Assembly (NCBI RefSeq): GCF_900105115.1
Contig: NZ_FNRV01000001.1
Span: 310,001-374,000 of the forward strand
Origin: Pseudomonas mohnii
Lineage (GTDB): Bacteria > Pseudomonadota > Gammaproteobacteria > Pseudomonadales > Pseudomonadaceae
Reading direction: 5' to 3'
DNA: 64,000 bases
Shown: positions 29,376 to 36,968 of the stretch, in pieces
How the letters are laid out: each line of letters opens with the position of its first letter
How positions within the stretch are numbered: position 1 is the first letter of the stretch
Made by a program: the position numbers and the translations under genes
The notes under the pieces: generated by a model
Told to the model about the DNA's origin: nothing
The model's input: the letters and a program-made list of their open reading frames with translations, nothing else
Database searches by the model: none

Positions 29376-29449
29376 AAAGATCGCAGCTGTTGGCGGCTCA
29401 TTGAGTGAACGCATTTCAATGCAGGCGCTTCCAAAGGCTGCGATCCTTT
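29376..29449. repeat. Inverted repeat of the GATCGCAGC family between convergent kguD and aruH
   Basis: AAAGATCGCAGC (29376-29387) and GCTGCGATCCTTT (29437-29449) pair with one mismatch. The core GATCAAAAGATCGCAGC is a second abundant Pseudomonas extragenic repeat type. The second arm touches the last codons of aruH. Likely a shared transcript end. Confidence 0.6.
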
Positions 29450-30636
29450 CAGGCCCGCCGCGCCTCCAGCAGGTCCATCGCGCACAGCGCAATGCGTCGG
29501 CACGCATCCGCCAGTTTTAGCTGGTCCACCACCAAGCCAAGGCGAATATGCCCCGCAGCACTCGGCCCGAACGCTTCGCCCGCCAGCACCGACACGCCAT
29601 AACCTTCCAGCAACCGCTCGGCGAAGCGATGGGCCGACAACCCGGTCTGGCGCACATCGACCATCACGAACATCCCGCCATCGGGCCTGATCGCGCGAAT
29701 GCCCGGACAATGGTTCAGGCTCGCGCACACCAGGTCACGACGCTGGCGATATTCCTCACGCATCAACGCCACCTCCGGCAGATCTTCATCAAGCGCCAAT
29801 TGCGCAGCCTTCTGCACGAACTCCGGAATGCCAAAGAGCATGCATAACGACAGATTCTCAAGATGGTCGTTCAAGGGCTTGGGCCCGACCACCCACCCCA
29901 CCCGCCAACCGCTCATGGCATGGGATTTGGACAGGCTATTGATGGTCGCGGTGCGCTCGGCCATACCCGGCAGACTTGCCGGGCTGATGTGTTCGCCCTC
30001 GTAAAGCAATTCGCTGTAGACCTCATCGCTAATCAGCCATAAATCATGCCGGATGCACAGCGACGCCAGCTCCTGCCAGACCATCAGGGGCAGGCTGGCG
30101 CCGGAAGGATTGTTCGGGCTGTTGAGCAAAATGGCGCGGGTCCTTGCCGTGATCAGTGCTGCCACATCCGCCGGATCGACCCGAAAGCCATTCTCCGGCC
30201 GCACGGCCACCGGTACCACTTTGGCGCCACAGGCCCCCATGACCCCTTCATAGGTGACGTACATCGGCTCGGCGACAATCACTTCATCCCCTGGATCGAG
30301 CAGGCATTGCACCACTGAATACACCGCGCTCTGGGCACCGGGCAGTACCACCACATGCTCGGCGTCCACTATCTGGCCGCTGGTAAGCCGATGACGGCGG
30401 GCAATGCTGTCGCGCAAGCCTCGACGGCCACGGACTTCCGAGTAGTGAGTATCACCCGCCAGCAGGCTGTCGATGGCCGCCTGCACCACGGGTTTGGGTG
30501 TGTCGAAATCCGGATCGCCGACGGATAACAGCAGTACATCGACACCCTGCTCTCGCAATTGCAGCGCTCGGTAATGGATCTGCCAGGCTGCCGCTCCGTC
30601 ACCGGCGATTCGATGGGTCAAGGATGAATAGCGCAT
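29449..30636 (-). CDS. aruH: Arginine:pyruvate transaminase AruH (class I PLP aminotransferase)
   Basis: 395 residues. The N terminus (MRYSSLTHRIAGDGAAAW...LLLSVGDPDFDTP), SPNNPSGASLP and the PLP lysine K237 in SLSKSHAMSGWRVGW are as in AruH of P. aeruginosa, which converts L-arginine and pyruvate to 2-ketoarginine and L-alanine in the arginine transaminase pathway. ATG 30636 follows AGGAGA on the minus strand. The partner 2-ketoarginine decarboxylase gene aruI is not in the window, so the pathway is incomplete here. Aromatic or branched-chain substrates cannot be ruled out. Confidence 0.88.
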   Translation of the reverse strand: MRYSSLTHRIAGDGAAAWQIHYRALQLREQGVDVLLLSVGDPDFDTPKPVVQAAIDSLLAGDTHYSEVRGRRGLRDSIARRHRLTSGQIVDAEHVVVLPGAQSAVYSVVQCLLDPGDEVIVAEPMYVTYEGVMGACGAKVVPVAVRPENGFRVDPADVAALITARTRAILLNSPNNPSGASLPLMVWQELASLCIRHDLWLISDEVYSELLYEGEHISPASLPGMAERTATINSLSKSHAMSGWRVGWVVGPKPLNDHLENLSLCMLFGIPEFVQKAAQLALDEDLPEVALMREEYRQRRDLVCASLNHCPGIRAIRPDGGMFVMVDVRQTGLSAHRFAERLLEGYGVSVLAGEAFGPSAAGHIRLGLVVDQLKLADACRRIALCAMDLLEARRA

Positions 30637-30932
30637 GTGGTTCTCCTGTCGCGCGGGCTCCAAGCCACAACCCTATCTCAAATCATGCAGTGCGCCAGCA
30701 GCGCATTCAATTCGACGACCGGCATCGCGCCACGTATTGCGAATCGGCGAGACCACCGATGCAGTCCGGTGCTGTTTTTTGCCGCCCTCCGGTGCCTCGC
30801 CAGATCAAAAAAATCCTTTCTATTCAATAATTTAGCGCTCTGTTTGTAGGAGGCGAGAACTCAAAGACACCGACTACAAACGCGGAGTGCTTTCACTGAC
30901 AGCCTTTCCCCGGCGCCTGATTAAAGTGCACC

Positions 30933-30979: not shown

Positions 30980-31100
30980 AACCCCGTACCTCAGCCCTTG
31001 TACAGGTGTCTGTAGGACGGCCGCGCGAACCACGCCATTTAGAAGTAGGAAGATTCTGCCGCGCCCACGCCGTCATTGATGATGAATGGGAGACTCAACC

Positions 31101-31385
31101 ATGCACCGTTCCGCCACCACTTCAGTTCGTGCATCGCCAGCCCCGGCCGATGTCCTGCATCAAGAAAGCGACCCCTCAGAAGAAATCACCCTCACCACCC
31201 GGGAAAAAGAAGTCTTGCAGTGGGTCTTCGCTGGCAAGTCGTCCTGGGAAATCTCCGTGATCTTCAGCTGTACCGAAGCAGGGGTGAATTACCACCTGAC
31301 CAATATCCGCCGAAAATTCGGCGTGAGCTCGCGCTGGGTCGCTATGGTCATGGCCCTGGAGCAAGGTTTGATTCAACGACCTTAA
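31101..31385 (+). CDS. HTH-only LuxR-family regulator (94 aa)
   Basis: 94 residues. A GerE/LuxR HTH domain occupies residues about 29-88 ([58 protein letters not shown]); the first 28 residues are low-complexity. There is no autoinducer-binding or receiver domain, so it is the DNA-binding half only. ATG 31101 follows GGGAGA. It lies behind a lux-box promoter that it may itself bind. A frameshifted second copy follows directly, and a truncated rhs gene ends 388 bases away on the other strand. Confidence 0.88.
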
Positions 31386-31484
31386 ACCGGCCGTCCAACA
31401 GTGGTCAGTGTGTTTGCAGGGGCAGTGAAGAACACCGGATGCAGGTGGCGTGCCTGACCTGCCCCAAACAACGGCTGCGTTGCG

Positions 31485-31674
31485 CTCACCACACGCAATA
31501 AAAGCACTGTTGTCGCCGGAGACACGTCGTCGTGGAAAATCAGCCGTTTCTTCAATGGCGGTGAAGCGGGTGTGAATGACCACTTCAGCAATATTCGTCG
31601 CACGTTTGGGGGGCAGTTCACGCCAGATGGCGGTGATGATGGTGTTGCATCGAGAAGAAATCTTCAGTGATCCG
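31485..31674 (+). pseudogene. Decayed second copy of the HTH-only LuxR gene
   Basis: In the 388-base gap after the LuxR gene, translation of 31485-31613 gives LTTRNKSTVVAG...SSWKIS, EAGVNDHFSNIRRTFG, clearly matching LTTREKEVL...[25 protein letters not shown] of the intact gene. At about 31611-31614 a one-base shift in a run of G moves the match to another frame (31615-31674: SSRQMAVMMVLHREEIFSDP versus [19 protein letters not shown]). About three codons near the start of the HTH are also lost and no start codon is left. It is a tandem duplicate that has decayed. Confidence 0.82.
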
Positions 31675-31773
31675 GTCATAGGTGGGCTTACACCAACGGC
31701 TTGCAGAAATTGCCTGTTTCCGTTGGTTGAAGTCCATGCTCGACAGGTTGTGCCGAGCACGGACTGGCTCCTG

Positions 31774-34620
31774 TTATGTTCTTCTAATGAAGTGCCCGCT
31801 CAACGCTGTGCCAGCCTCTGCTTGTTGGCTCTGACTGAGTCCACTGATTTTAAAGTTCTGTTTAAACATGGATTCCTTAGCACGTGTTCGCGCCCTCCAT
31901 TGCTGCAAACCGCTTGGTGGCTTTTCCAGCGCATCATACATTTTTGGTCCTTTTACATCGGCAATAGGACTTGAGCCTTTTGCAGCTAACTGGCCCGGCC
32001 TGAGTTGGATTTCTCCGCTCGTTAGTTGGTCCCAGTAACCGCCTGTTACCCGTCCACGTTTGAGAGCGCCACGGGGTTGAATCTTGCCACCGTCGGAGAC
32101 AGCGTTACCTGCGGTCCTGGAAACTCGCGTACCCGCATTTGTGCTCCTGCTGAGTGCCCCACCTGAACTGGGCGATCCTTGACCCGCTTTCGCTGCAGAA
32201 CGGCTTGCCTTTGCGCCAGTTGCTGCCGTTTTTCCGAAAAGCCGGCCAAAAAACTTTGTCACAGCCAGGGGCAAGCGCCACCTACCCTCCGGATCCACAT
32301 AATCAACCGGATTACCCTCGCAGTACGCATAGGGGTTAACCCCGCCTTGCTCAAAAGGACTCTCACTGTCCGAACTGTTAAACCTCATCAACACCGGACT
32401 AAACGCCCGATAACCATTGCCCAACAAATACCGTCCGGTCTGTCCTTCCCTTCGCTCGCCGTTGTAACTCAATTGGCTGCTCACCGAGGGGTCATTCGCA
32501 CGGTGGCCATACGGTGAATACGCGACCTCCTTGCGCCCGGCCCTGCTGACCTCGGCGAGCACGCTGCTCTTCATGTCACTGGCCAGCAATAAAGACTTTG
32601 GGTCGGCACCTGCCTTTAGCTCAGCGAGCACCACGTCTTCACCCCGAATAAAGGTACTGCTGTTGGCGCCCTTGATCTGGTTGGCAAGGCTGCCGTCCTG
32701 ATAAAAACGCTGTTCCTGGCCACCACCGTCGCTCACCCCGGCCAGTGTATCGAGGGGGTCGTAGTGGTAGCTGCCCGGCGTTTCGCCCGGCAGTGCGCTG
32801 ACGCTGATCAAACGGCCCAGCGCATCGTATTCCAGAGTGCGATTGGCTTCGTCGCGAATCAGGTGACCGTCGGCGTTGTAGTCGAGCAGAATTTCCGCCG
32901 GGTAATCGACGTCAGTGTTGACAACTTTGCGCAGCTGCGTCGGATCAACCGTGTCATAGGTATAGATGGCCCGGTTGCTGCCACCGTCAAAGGTCGTCAG
33001 CACAAGCTGGAGGTTGTCCACTGGACTGAACGAAAACACCTGACCGGTGATGGTCTTGCCATAGGGATCAACCGGGCGTTGAGTGCCCCCACATGTGTAG
33101 GTGGTCAACCTTCCGCGCAAGTCATAGCCGTACGTTTCATCACGCAGCACGACAGTCCCTTCTTTCAGCGTCCGCAGGGCCAGGCCATCGACATCGTTGT
33201 ACTTCTGCGTCATTTGCTGCTTCACACCGTCGAGATCGAATTCGCGCAGAGTTTCCCGATCGAACTCGTCGTACTCCAATCTGATGCCAACGCTTTGCCC
33301 ACTGCCGGTGTCGCTGGTTGTGATGGTTTCCGGTCGCCCCAGTAAATCGTAGGTAAACGTCGAAGATGTAGTACCCAGTTGGGTGTGTACCAGTCGTCCG
33401 TCGGCATTGTAGCGATAGGTTTGTTCCTGACGCAGCACATCGGTGTAACCCAGCAAACGCCCGAGCCGGCTATAGCGATAGTCCATGGTGTATTCGCCCT
33501 GAGCGACGGTGCGTTTTTCGCGCTTGGGTTCACCGGTGCTGTAGTACTCACGCGTCAGTGCGATGTCCTGCTCCTGGCAAAACACCAGGCGCGCGTTTTT
33601 CGTGTCGTATTCATACGTGGCCTCGTCAACCTCGCCCTTGAGGCCGATGCTCGGTAATCGGCGCAACACAGGTTCACTGCCCAACTGCGGCACATAGGCA
33701 TACTCGATGACCTCCCCACTCGCCATGGTGACCGAACTCGGCTGGGTTTGCCCCGGCTCGTAGTCGAAGACCTGTTCGCGACCGCCAGTGACGGCCTTGA
33801 TCCTGCGGTCAAGGCCGTCGAACGCCTGGGTGCCCAGCTGGATATTGTTGACACTGATGCTCGTTGGCAAATCGTTGCGGCTATGCGTGGCAAAACTGCG
33901 CCGCACGATCGCTTCGTCGGGCAAGGTGTTGGTGATCAGCCGATCAAATGCGTCATAGCTGTACTGCGTGACGCGCTGGACCTTGTCGAATCCTACGATC
34001 TCCTTCTGAGTCCGCCCTAGTCCGTCATAAAAATACTGATGCAGGCTGACACGTTGCTGGGCCAGATTGAAACGTTCGGTGCGCGTCGGTTTCTCGAACA
34101 GGTTGAACCAGGTTTCGGTCACGCCGCTCACTGGCGGATTCTCACCCGCGCCCTGACGCCAGCTACGCTGAATCGGGCCTTGGGACACCTCTGTACCGAT
34201 GGGATCGGTTTCCTCGAAGGTTTTCACACCGTCCGCCCCGGTTACACAGCGCTGCTGGCCCCAGTCGTCAAACTCATATTCAGTGGTCAGGGCCAGTGCC
34301 GTCGCGCCGATCCAGTCGAACTCGGTTTCTTTCACCAGGTTGCCGAATGAGTCGTAGCCGCCGGCATAGATCTGGCGTGGCGGGCTATTGGGCGCCGGGT
34401 TATCGGCGTCATCGCGCTCTTCGTAAATGACCCGGTTGAGCCCGTCGAAGCGGGCGGTGGTTTTTACATTCTTGACATCGAACATCCGTTGCTCGGCCTG
34501 CTCGCCTGCTTTGGCGCACAGGAAATACTCATAGCGACGGGTGGCTTCGTACGCCGTGCCTGGCGCCGCCGTTTCGCTGATCACCCGCTGCAGTGCGTCG
34601 TAGGCATAACGGATCATCAC
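31774..34620 (-). pseudogene. rhs: 5'-truncated rhs gene (YD-repeat protein with C-terminal tip)
   Basis: 948 codons open from GTG 34620. YD/RHS repeats run from the very first residues (IRYAYDALQRV, YGYDLRGRLTTY, YRYNADGRLVH, LEYDALGRLISV), and the RHS-associated core is complete (YLLGNGYRAFSPVLMRFNSSDS...NPYAYCEGNPVDYVDPEG). A variable tip of about 165 residues follows (RWRLPLAVTKFF...SGHFIRRT). Rhs proteins usually have several hundred residues before such repeats, so the 5' part is missing; the break falls where the glycerate kinase gene is also cut. TGA of glxK overlaps GTG/ATG of this frame, so translation by coupling remains possible. No immunity gene is seen beyond the tip. Confidence 0.8.
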
Positions 34621-35672
34621 GAGATCATCGGCCCGCTCGGCAACGCGAATGCGGCGTCGATGCCATGGGCATACAGATCCTGGTAATCCTCACCCAGGGT
34701 GCCAGCGATAACGATCACCGGCACGCCATGTTCACGGGCGATGCGCGCCACGCCAAAGGGCGTCTTGCCGCGCAGGGTTTGCGCATCGAAACGCCCTTCG
34801 CCGGTGATCACCAGATCGGCGCCCTCCACCAGTTCGGCCAGGCCCACCAGCTCTGCGACCACTTCTACCCCGGCCTTGAACTGCGCGCCCAGAAACGCCT
34901 TGGCGGCAAATCCCAGCCCCCCCGCCGCACCGCTGCCGGGTTCGTCACGCACATCCTTGCCCAGGACTTTGGCGCAGTGATCGGCAAAGTGCCCAAGGGC
35001 GCGGTCCAGCTGTTCGACCTGTTCGGGCGAGGCGCCTTTTTGCGGACCGAAAATCGCCGAGGCACCTTGAGCGCCGCACAATGGATTGTCCACATCCGCA
35101 GCGATTTCGAAGTGCACGGCGGCCAGGCGCGGATCGATGTCCGACAAATCAATCTTCGCCAGTCGTCTCAGCGCCAGACCTCCTGGCGGCAAAGGCTGTC
35201 CCCGGGCGTCAAGCAACTTCACCCCCAAGGCTTGCATGGCCCCGGCGCCACCATCATTGGTAGCACTGCCGCCAACCGCCAGAATCACCCGTTGCGCGCC
35301 CGCATCCAGGGCGGCGCGGATCAACTCGCCGGTGCCGTAGGTGCTGCTGGTGCAAGCATCGCGGTGGTCCAACGGGATCAATTGCAAACCGCTGGCTTCA
35401 GCCATTTCGATGATCGCGGTGTGGCTGTCGGGCAACCAGCACCACCTCGCATCGACGGGTGAGCCCAATGGCCCGCAAACCGCCGCCCAGCAAAGTGCGC
35501 TATCACGCGCTGCGAGCACCGCTTTGATCGTGCCCTCACCACCGTCAGCCATCGGGCATGTGATCAGTTGCGCGTCGAGCCATACCCCGGCCAGTCCCAT
35601 GGCGATGGCGTCGGCCGCGCCTTGGGCGCTGAGGCTGTCCTTGAACGAGTCCGGGGCAATGACGATTTTCAT
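34617..35672 (-). CDS. glxK: Glycerate 2-kinase, truncated at the C terminus by rhs
   Basis: 351 residues, family usually about 380. GlxK/GarK features are clear: MKIVIAPDSFKDSLSA, CPMADGGEGT, the substrate motif VGGSATNDGGAGAMQALG, DEPGSGAAGGLGFAAKAFLGA and ITGEGRFDAQTLRGKTPFGVARIA. It phosphorylates glycerate in glyoxylate/allantoin or tartronate pathways. After AFALPSGPM the expected terminal helix of about 25-30 residues (starting LEQA.. in relatives) is replaced by I-S-stop, exactly where the rhs frame begins. Activity may be lost or reduced. It diverges from the aldo/keto reductase gene. Confidence 0.85.
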   Translation of the reverse strand: MKIVIAPDSFKDSLSAQGAADAIAMGLAGVWLDAQLITCPMADGGEGTIKAVLAARDSALCWAAVCGPLGSPVDARWCWLPDSHTAIIEMAEASGLQLIPLDHRDACTSSTYGTGELIRAALDAGAQRVILAVGGSATNDGGAGAMQALGVKLLDARGQPLPPGGLALRRLAKIDLSDIDPRLAAVHFEIAADVDNPLCGAQGASAIFGPQKGASPEQVEQLDRALGHFADHCAKVLGKDVRDEPGSGAAGGLGFAAKAFLGAQFKAGVEVVAELVGLAELVEGADLVITGEGRFDAQTLRGKTPFGVARIAREHGVPVIVIAGTLGEDYQDLYAHGIDAAFALPSGPMIS

Positions 35673-35954
35673 GCGAATTCTCCCTATTCATTACATCAAT
35701 GCTGCCAGCCCGCATTAGCGATAGCGCCGGTCGGCAGCGCATGCGGAAAAGATTTTTTTCAATTCCAGCCAGCCAACGTTACCGCTGGGGGAATCGGCTT
35801 GCCAATGATACTAACGTCACCATCGCCATCCCCGGCAAGCCAGCGTTCACAAAGCGCTTGTGGCAGCCGCTGGCCTATCGTTCGATATTCGTTTGCTCAC
35901 GGGGGTTGTTCTGGTATTTGATTGAGCCTTTCCCATCGGTAAAAGGATTTTGTC

Positions 35955-36968
35955 ATGAGCTACCGCACGCTGGGTCAATCAGGGCTGCAGGTGTCCACCC
36001 TGACCCTGGGCACCATGATGTTCGGCGAACAGACCAGCACCGAAGATTCCCTGCGAATCATCGACAAGGCTTGGGACCAGGGCATCAATTTCATCGACAC
36101 CGCCGACGTCTACACCCATGGCCGTTCGGAAGAAATCGTCGGCGAAGCGATCGCCAGTCGCCGTCAGGAATGGGTGCTGGCCACCAAGGTCGGTTTCGGT
36201 CCGGTGGATGGCGTGCCAAACCGTAGCGGCCTGAACCGCAAGCACCTCTTCAACGGTATCGAAGCCAGCCTGACGCGTCTGGGCACCGACTATCTCGACA
36301 TCTATTACCTGCACCGCGAAGACCACAACACGCCGCTGGAAGTCACGGTGTCAGCCATCGGCGACTTGATTCGCCAGGGCAAGGTCCGCTATTGGGGCCT
36401 GTCGAACTACCGTGGCTGGCGCATCGCCGAGGTGATTCGCATTGCCGACCACCTTGGCGTCGACCGGCCGGTGATCAGCCAGCCGCTGTACAACATCGTC
36501 AACCGCCAGGCCGAAACCGAGCAGATCACCGCCGCGCAGAACTACGGCCTGGGCGTGGTGCCTTACAGTCCATTGGCGCGCGGCGTGCTCAGCGGCAAGT
36601 ACGCACCGGATGTCACCCCGGACGCCAACAGCCGTGCCGGGCGCCAGGACAAACGCATCCTGGAAACCGAATGGCGCGTCGAGTCGCTGCGCATCGCCCA
36701 GCAGATCCAGCAGTACACCCTGGAACGCGGCGTCGGCATGGTCGAGTTCGCCATCGCCTGGGTACTGAACAACAGCGCCGTGACGTCGGCCATCGTCGGC
36801 CCGCGTACCGAAGCGCAATGGGATGCCTACACTAAGGCCCAGGCGGTGAAGATTACGGCTGAAGATGAAGCGTTCATCGATTCGCTGGTGACGCCGGGGC
36901 ATGCATCGACGCCGGGGTTCAACGACGTGAGTCATTTCGTGTCGGGCCGTAAACCGCGTACCCACTGA
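35955..36968 (+). CDS. Aldo/keto reductase
   Basis: 337 residues, TIM-barrel AKR. Catalytic tetrad members are visible: Asp and Tyr in FIDTADVYTHGRSEEIVGEA, Lys in VLATKVGFG and His in YLHREDHNTP. It has the NADPH-binding end motif (ITSAIVGPRTEAQWD). The substrate is unknown; the closest feel is the YajO/IolS-like group. Start ATG 35955 follows AAAGGATTTTGTC. The 282-base gap from glxK contains no recognised gene. Probably a single-gene unit. Confidence 0.88.
   Translation: MSYRTLGQSGLQVSTLTLGTMMFGEQTSTEDSLRIIDKAWDQGINFIDTADVYTHGRSEEIVGEAIASRRQEWVLATKVGFGPVDGVPNRSGLNRKHLFNGIEASLTRLGTDYLDIYYLHREDHNTPLEVTVSAIGDLIRQGKVRYWGLSNYRGWRIAEVIRIADHLGVDRPVISQPLYNIVNRQAETEQITAAQNYGLGVVPYSPLARGVLSGKYAPDVTPDANSRAGRQDKRILETEWRVESLRIAQQIQQYTLERGVGMVEFAIAWVLNNSAVTSAIVGPRTEAQWDAYTKAQAVKITAEDEAFIDSLVTPGHASTPGFNDVSHFVSGRKPRTH

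What the first reader, a model, noticed from the sequence alone, without database searches (positions are those of the whole stretch)
31774..35672. Glycerate kinase and rhs genes broken at the same point and fused tail to head
glxK (minus strand) stops right after AFALPSGPM, without the terminal helix of about 25-30 residues expected in the family. The next frame on the same strand is an rhs gene that begins in the middle of YD repeats. The stop TGA of glxK overlaps GTG/ATG of the rhs frame, so the fusion may still be translated by coupling. A 7-base direct repeat GATCATC (34612-34618 and 34623-34629) sits at the junction. This looks like a deletion or recombination scar that removed the glxK end and the rhs start together.
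Basis: partly seen in the sequence, partly recalled or inferred. Interest (0 to 1): 0.75.

Follow-up and report, generated by a model that had tools for sequence, protein, structure and literature searches.

The report
Deletion scar joining glxK and rhs
In this Pseudomonas genome a deletion seems to have removed the end of a glycerate kinase gene and the front part of a neighbouring rhs (toxin-type repeat) gene, leaving their remains joined end to end; it looks like ordinary decay at a chromosomal spot where rhs genes are also cut and fused to neighbours in some related genomes.

Summary
glxK (minus strand) ends after 351 codons; homology to other Pseudomonas GlxK stops after codon 349, and 80 of 80 named relatives have 377-391 codons. 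The rhs frame that follows lacks about 600-635 N-terminal codons of full-length relatives. No listed match from 398 genomes, own aside, crosses the junction (list cut). The missing glxK tail is nowhere in the window. G107 keeps intact glxK, a long rhs, convergent luxR and the same downstream genes in the same order, so a deletion is the simplest account. Intact relatives of both genes share CGATGAC at the breakpoint in 24 of 40 pairs, which suggests a short-homology deletion; GATCATC is weak evidence. glxK has evolved unusually fast for this lineage and a TtuD-type glycerate kinase remains: both fit reduced function, unproven. Four other genomes show comparable gene-rhs junctions at or beside this locus. 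Rhs loci as rearrangement sites are known; this is a well-documented instance, with an untested hint that junctions may be kept when rhs stays translatable.

The parts
34617..35672 (-). glxK, class 1 glycerate kinase (PF02595), 3'-truncated: 351 codons instead of about 380
   Evidence: only PF02595 match in its genome
34614..34625 (-). junction: relatives' glxK DNA reaches 34620-34625, relatives' rhs DNA reaches at most 34614-34620
31774..34620 (-). 5'-truncated rhs frame, 948 codons; about 600-635 N-terminal codons of full-length relatives are missing
32284..32520 (-). RHS repeat-associated core domain (TIGR03696, residues 701-779 of the frame)
31777..32292 (-). C-terminal tip after the core; no match in Pfam or NCBIfam (E up to 0.1) or PADLOC (E up to 0.01)
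34612..34618 (.). GATCATC copy 1 (rhs side); weak evidence
34623..34629 (.). GATCATC copy 2 (glxK side); weak evidence
31086..31385 (+). short LuxR-type HTH gene (99 codons), convergent with rhs; a like gene follows many related rhs genes
29449..30663 (-). class I/II aminotransferase gene (PF00155), synteny marker downstream of glxK in many relatives

Best explanation
A full-length rhs gene (1,545-1,588 codons in relatives), followed by a convergent short luxR gene, lay downstream of glxK on the same strand. A single deletion, probably between short matching sequences (CGATGA/C), removed the last 31 or so codons of glxK, whatever lay between, and about 600-635 codons of rhs. The rhs remnant now follows glxK with a stop/start overlap. 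Shown: both truncations, the shared breakpoint, absence of the glxK tail from the window, and the same gene order in a relative with intact glxK. Inferred: that it was a deletion, its size (about 1.9 kb or more), the short homology, co-transcription, that truncated GlxK is inactive or dispensable because a TtuD-type glycerate kinase remains, and any translation of the rhs remnant.
For: 0 of 80 named relatives share the short GlxK. rhs relatives continue about 600-650 open codons upstream of the window's first rhs residue where enough sequence was held (L200-L202). The 31-residue tails of 8 relatives give no match in the 64 kb window better than E 0.26. G107 has intact glxK - MCP - long rhs - response regulator - luxR - aminotransferase - 2-hydroxyacid dehydrogenase - MFS, same order and strands as the window minus the missing pieces. 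G392 keeps a full-length rhs, 69% identical over the shared part, followed by luxR, the dehydrogenase (90%) and MFS (96%). CGATGAC or longer is shared at the breakpoint in 24 of 40 relative pairs; random pairs share 7 or more bases in 123 of 5000. The rhs 5' half is in the own genome only as a 38% paralogue. glxK has the longest terminal branch of 81 (0.174, median 0.031) and the most private changes at otherwise invariant sites (4; next 3). gcl-hyi-glxR-ttuD-pyk is present.
Against: No same-species strain or direct ancestor was available. G107's rhs is only 48% identical to the window's and lacks its own first ~200 residues, so it models the layout, not the parent; in G392 the rhs stands about 24 kb from glxK. 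In 16 of 40 pairs the shared sequence is only 5 bases, which random pairs reach or exceed in 36%, and the pairs are not independent. About 10 bases after CGATGA fit neither parent type well. The window is a long branch in general (about twice the median for four neighbours), and glxK pN/pS (0.195 against 0.145) still shows mainly constraint, so loss of function is recent, partial or not certain. Outside the window the glxK tail was not sought with enough sensitivity: the only whole-genome try did not list the own glxK either.
Confidence: 0.8

Rival explanations
1. A partial rhs module (YD repeats, core and tip), arriving as a fragment or circular intermediate, was inserted at the end of glxK and replaced its tail, so a full-length rhs never stood here.
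For: Short rhs pieces starting at many different points occur at this locus (L107, L088, L091, L095, L114), and displacement of rhs C-termini through circular intermediates is proposed in PMC2935791 (abstract read).
Against: A simple insertion would leave the glxK tail on the far side; it is not in the window, and the luxR-to-aminotransferase distance is about 460 bp both here and in G107. The remnant keeps about 700 codons before the core, more than the pieces in L088, L091, L095, L107, L114 and L191.
Confidence: 0.1
2. Assembly or sequencing error at the junction.
For: Reads cannot be inspected here; no other listed genome shows the junction.
Against: The window lies on a 6.476 Mb contig of a two-contig assembly rated 100% complete, 0.89% contaminated. 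Comparable junctions occur in four other genomes. Fast evolution of glxK is not expected from a misjoin.
Confidence: 0.05
3. The truncated GlxK and the rhs remnant form a functional, selected bicistron: the rhs tip is expressed by coupling to glxK.
For: GTGA overlap here and ATGA overlap at L107; in-frame fusions at L191 and L192; no terminator-like site on the minus strand. PMC3967940 reports recombination that lets an orphan rhs toxin be expressed (abstract read).
Against: Only five junctions, found after the fact; a 4-nt overlap arises in 7-12% of out-of-frame breakpoints, and 4 of 5 in frame or 4-nt coupled has a chance of about 0.07-0.09. No ribosome-binding-like sequence is seen by eye; no immunity-like gene was found, and the tip matches no family searched. 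The autotransporter halves in L107 and L192 are themselves broken.
Confidence: 0.08

Closest known systems
Orphan rhs tips and C-terminal displacement (PMC2935791, abstract read)
   Same: 5'-truncated rhs without its own start, at a locus that changes often
   Different: No full-length rhs lies upstream of the remnant; the nearest other rhs-like place in the genome is about 414 kb away. The remnant is joined to a metabolic gene and keeps about 700 codons before the core.
Evolved Salmonella recombinants that express an orphan rhs toxin (PMC3967940, abstract read)
   Same: A rearrangement changes what lies in front of an rhs 3' part
   Different: There the main rhs and the orphan recombine; here the upstream partner is glxK and no expression is shown
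Autotransporter-rhs and U659-rhs junctions at or beside the same locus (L107, L091, L191, L192; this work)
   Same: Upstream gene cut on its 3' side where a 5'-truncated rhs begins, same strand
   Different: Other partner genes and breakpoints; two are in frame; L192 lies just past the aminotransferase gene; in L191 the autotransporter origin of the 50-residue leader is weakly supported

Membership tests
Class 1 glycerate kinase (GlxK/GarK; PF02595, TIGR00045) | Sequence match over the family cut-off | tested here: met
   476.8 bits against 23.3; 472.1 against 168.45
Class 1 glycerate kinase (GlxK/GarK; PF02595, TIGR00045) | Complete C-terminal segment | tested here: not met
   Match ends at profile 347/372; relatives 377-391 codons, here 351
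Class 1 glycerate kinase (GlxK/GarK; PF02595, TIGR00045) | Kinase activity | not testable with these tools
   Models of truncated and full-length forms are both low confidence (mean pLDDT 41.8 and 50.7)
Rhs / YD-repeat protein | YD repeats and RHS repeat-associated core | tested here: met
   TIGR01643, TIGR03696, PF05593
Rhs / YD-repeat protein | N-terminal portion with own start | tested here: not met
   Frame starts at about residue 607-635 of relatives
Rhs / YD-repeat protein | Linked immunity gene | tested here: inconclusive
   The longest same-strand frame just downstream (31176-31760, antisense to luxR) has no Pfam or PADLOC match; a 79-codon frame inside the same stretch was not searched; the tip itself is unassigned
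Orphan rhs tip | Lies downstream of a full-length rhs | tested here: not met
   glxK is directly upstream; other rhs-like places are far away
Short-homology deletion | Short identical sequence at both parental breakpoints | tested here: inconclusive
   CGATGAC or longer in 24 of 40 relative pairs, 123 of 5000 random pairs; true parents unknown

The most novel reading that the evidence does not exclude
The glxK-aminotransferase region in these Pseudomonas genomes is a site where 5'-truncated rhs genes are repeatedly joined to whichever same-strand gene lies upstream, and the surviving junctions tend to be in frame or stop/start-coupled, so that rhs tips are brought back into expression by capturing a neighbour's expression signals. 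Four of the five junctions found are in frame or have a 4-nt overlap.
Probability: 0.12. Interest if true: 0.6.

Novelty: new member of a known kind. Interest (0 to 1): 0.35.

Why it matters
It is a clean example of rhs-linked decay reaching a metabolic gene: a deletion that cost the strain the tail of its only class 1 glycerate kinase, with sequence signs of relaxed constraint and a second-class enzyme elsewhere. If the wider pattern holds, this locus is a natural series of independent rhs breakpoints, which would let one test whether rhs remnants are just debris or are kept because they can be translated from a neighbour's message.

Tried and rejected
GATCATC as the deletion repeat: rejected, both copies remain and such pairs are not rare. 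Normal lengths for both genes: rejected. Missing rhs 5' half elsewhere in the genome: only a 38% paralogue. glxK tail on the far side of an insertion: not in the window. An MCP gene that lies between glxK and rhs in G107 has an 81% DNA match at own C1:1039574-1041400, between other genes; it may have moved or never been at glxK here, so it was not used to size the deletion. Structure models were too poor to judge the truncation. Plasmids gave no match to window 31000-36000. Phage records: 10 with matches to the rhs frame, all under 60% identity, 8 of them APSE records; none was fetched. PADLOC gave nothing. A paper search for 'rhs gene', LuxR, Pseudomonas and convergent together found 0 papers; the other three searches gave listings, from which two abstracts and passages of one paper were read. 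pN/pS of rhs against its two nearest relatives (0.29 and 0.28) says little about the time after the deletion. The insertion rival was lowered from 0.12 to 0.10 because one search finds no tail.

Full report
The window lies on a 6.476 Mb contig of a two-contig, 6.59 Mb genome, a Pseudomonas by its nearest named relatives. On the minus strand glxK (34617-35672) is followed at once by an rhs frame (31774-34620).

GlxK is truncated. Pfam and NCBIfam matches end before the profile end (347/372 and 345/375). Of 298 genomes of the genus, 270 had a match to GlxK; the listed best ones, own genome aside, match residues 1-349 and sit in open frames of 381 or more codons (list cut). The 29 relatives read have 378-386 codons, the 80 named loci 377-391 (the sets overlap). 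With a DNA query spanning 34320-34920, 363 of 398 genomes had a match; the matches listed for other genomes all lie on the glxK side, starting at query 301 or later, and none crosses to the rhs side (the list was cut). Tails of 8 relatives have no match in the 64 kb window better than E 0.26.

The rhs is truncated at its front. Related genes have about 600-650 open codons before the window's first rhs residue where enough sequence was held, and full-length forms are 1545-1588 codons. The nearest full-length ones are 64% and 69% identical over the shared part (L200, L201); another 69% relative (L079) is interrupted by a stop. The own genome has 12 rhs-like places including this one; the best-scoring other matches residues 4-794 at 41%, the rest are short matches at 40-47%. 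The N-terminal half is present only as a 38% paralogue.

Order in relatives. In G107: glxK (380 codons), MCP (541), a long rhs frame (1377 codons, lacking the first ~200 residues of full-length relatives), a response regulator, a convergent short luxR, aminotransferase, 2-hydroxyacid dehydrogenase and MFS. The window has the same order and strands without the glxK tail, MCP, the rhs front and the response regulator. In G392 a full-length rhs is followed by luxR, the dehydrogenase and MFS, with glxK about 24 kb upstream on the same strand and the aminotransferase beside glxK. Of the 80 named glxK loci (flanks up to 10 kb, some shorter), 6 hold an rhs-like stretch and 8 the luxR gene. So the interval is variable, and most loci have no rhs there.

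Breakpoint. Relatives' glxK matches reach 34620-34625 and rhs matches 34603-34620. Intact glxK (8 loci) and rhs (5 loci, L079 being interrupted further on) share CGATGAC or longer in 24 of 40 pairs and only CGATG in 16; random pairs share 7 or more bases in 123 of 5000, 5 or more in 36%. This suits a short-homology deletion, but about ten bases after CGATGA fit neither parent type well and the true parents are unknown. GATCATC is not persuasive.

Consequences. glxK has the longest terminal branch of 81 in a protein tree (0.174; median 0.031, 5.6-fold). The window ranks 9 of 57, 5 of 69, 3 of 42 and 8 of 36 for aminotransferase, aldo-keto reductase, dehydrogenase and MFS, each about twice the median, so it is a long branch in general and glxK more so; by root-to-tip length glxK ranks only 17 of 81, by mean pN 7 of 81. 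It has 4 changes at sites invariant in the other 80 (next highest 3, median 0) and pN/pS 0.195 against 0.145. This suggests relaxed constraint, not full decay. There is no second PF02595 gene, but a TtuD-type gene (PF05161) sits in a gcl-hyi-glxR-ttuD-pyk cluster (gene names by recognition). In P. aeruginosa the glycerate kinase of that cluster, PA1499, is of another sub-group, 19% and 21% identical to E. coli GlxK and GarK (PMC12694930, passages read). Structure models were too weak to use.

Comparable junctions. L107: an autotransporter gene (PF03797 and PF03212 in the intact relative L102) is cut at residue ~328 where rhs begins near residue 1120, with an ATGA overlap. L091: a gene of the 659-codon type (no Pfam match) is cut at ~504 where rhs begins near 1312, out of frame. 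L191 (G263): a leader of about 50 residues, weakly like the autotransporter start (E 1e-4), runs in frame into rhs near 908. L192 (G276): an autotransporter cut near 634 runs in frame into rhs near 1205, just past the aminotransferase gene. With the window that makes five junctions, all on one strand, all at different points. I looked at 12 loci with rhs pieces in this neighbourhood (window, L075, L086, L088, L091, L095, L107, L114, L163, L191, L192, L193); the other seven show no clear cut neighbour (L088 unclear, L193 at a contig end). Four of five are in frame or 4-nt coupled; with 0.38-0.41 expected per junction (one third in frame plus two thirds of 7-12%) the chance is 0.07-0.09. With so few, chosen afterwards, this is only a hint.

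Verdict: a real deletion-type scar, correctly noticed, at a site where rhs rearrangements recur; new in detail, known in kind.

Noticed in passing
31086-31385 (+): A short LuxR-HTH gene lies convergent to the rhs 3' end. A like gene is convergent in 11 of 19 related rhs loci with about 1.5 kb of flank (L044-L062, one of them a short partial match) but in 0 of 11 loci of the own genome's other rhs-like genes (L033-L043).
   Followed up: partly
31479-31610 (+): A decayed second copy of the LuxR HTH (55% over residues 34-79), scoring best against the luxR of L107 and L088.
   Followed up: partly
L180:5573-7198 (own genome C1 about 1.04 Mb): The MCP gene that sits beside glxK in several relatives is found here at a different place, with repeated intergenic sequence (REP-like, my naming) nearby.
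   Followed up: partly
L192:6250-9246 and L191:4965-7052 (both counted on the reverse complement of the locus): In-frame fusions of an autotransporter, or a leader weakly like one, to a 5'-truncated rhs in two other genomes.
   Followed up: partly
35433-35528 (glxK residues 49-80): A cluster of unusual substitutions in the window's GlxK, including three of its four private changes.
   Followed up: no
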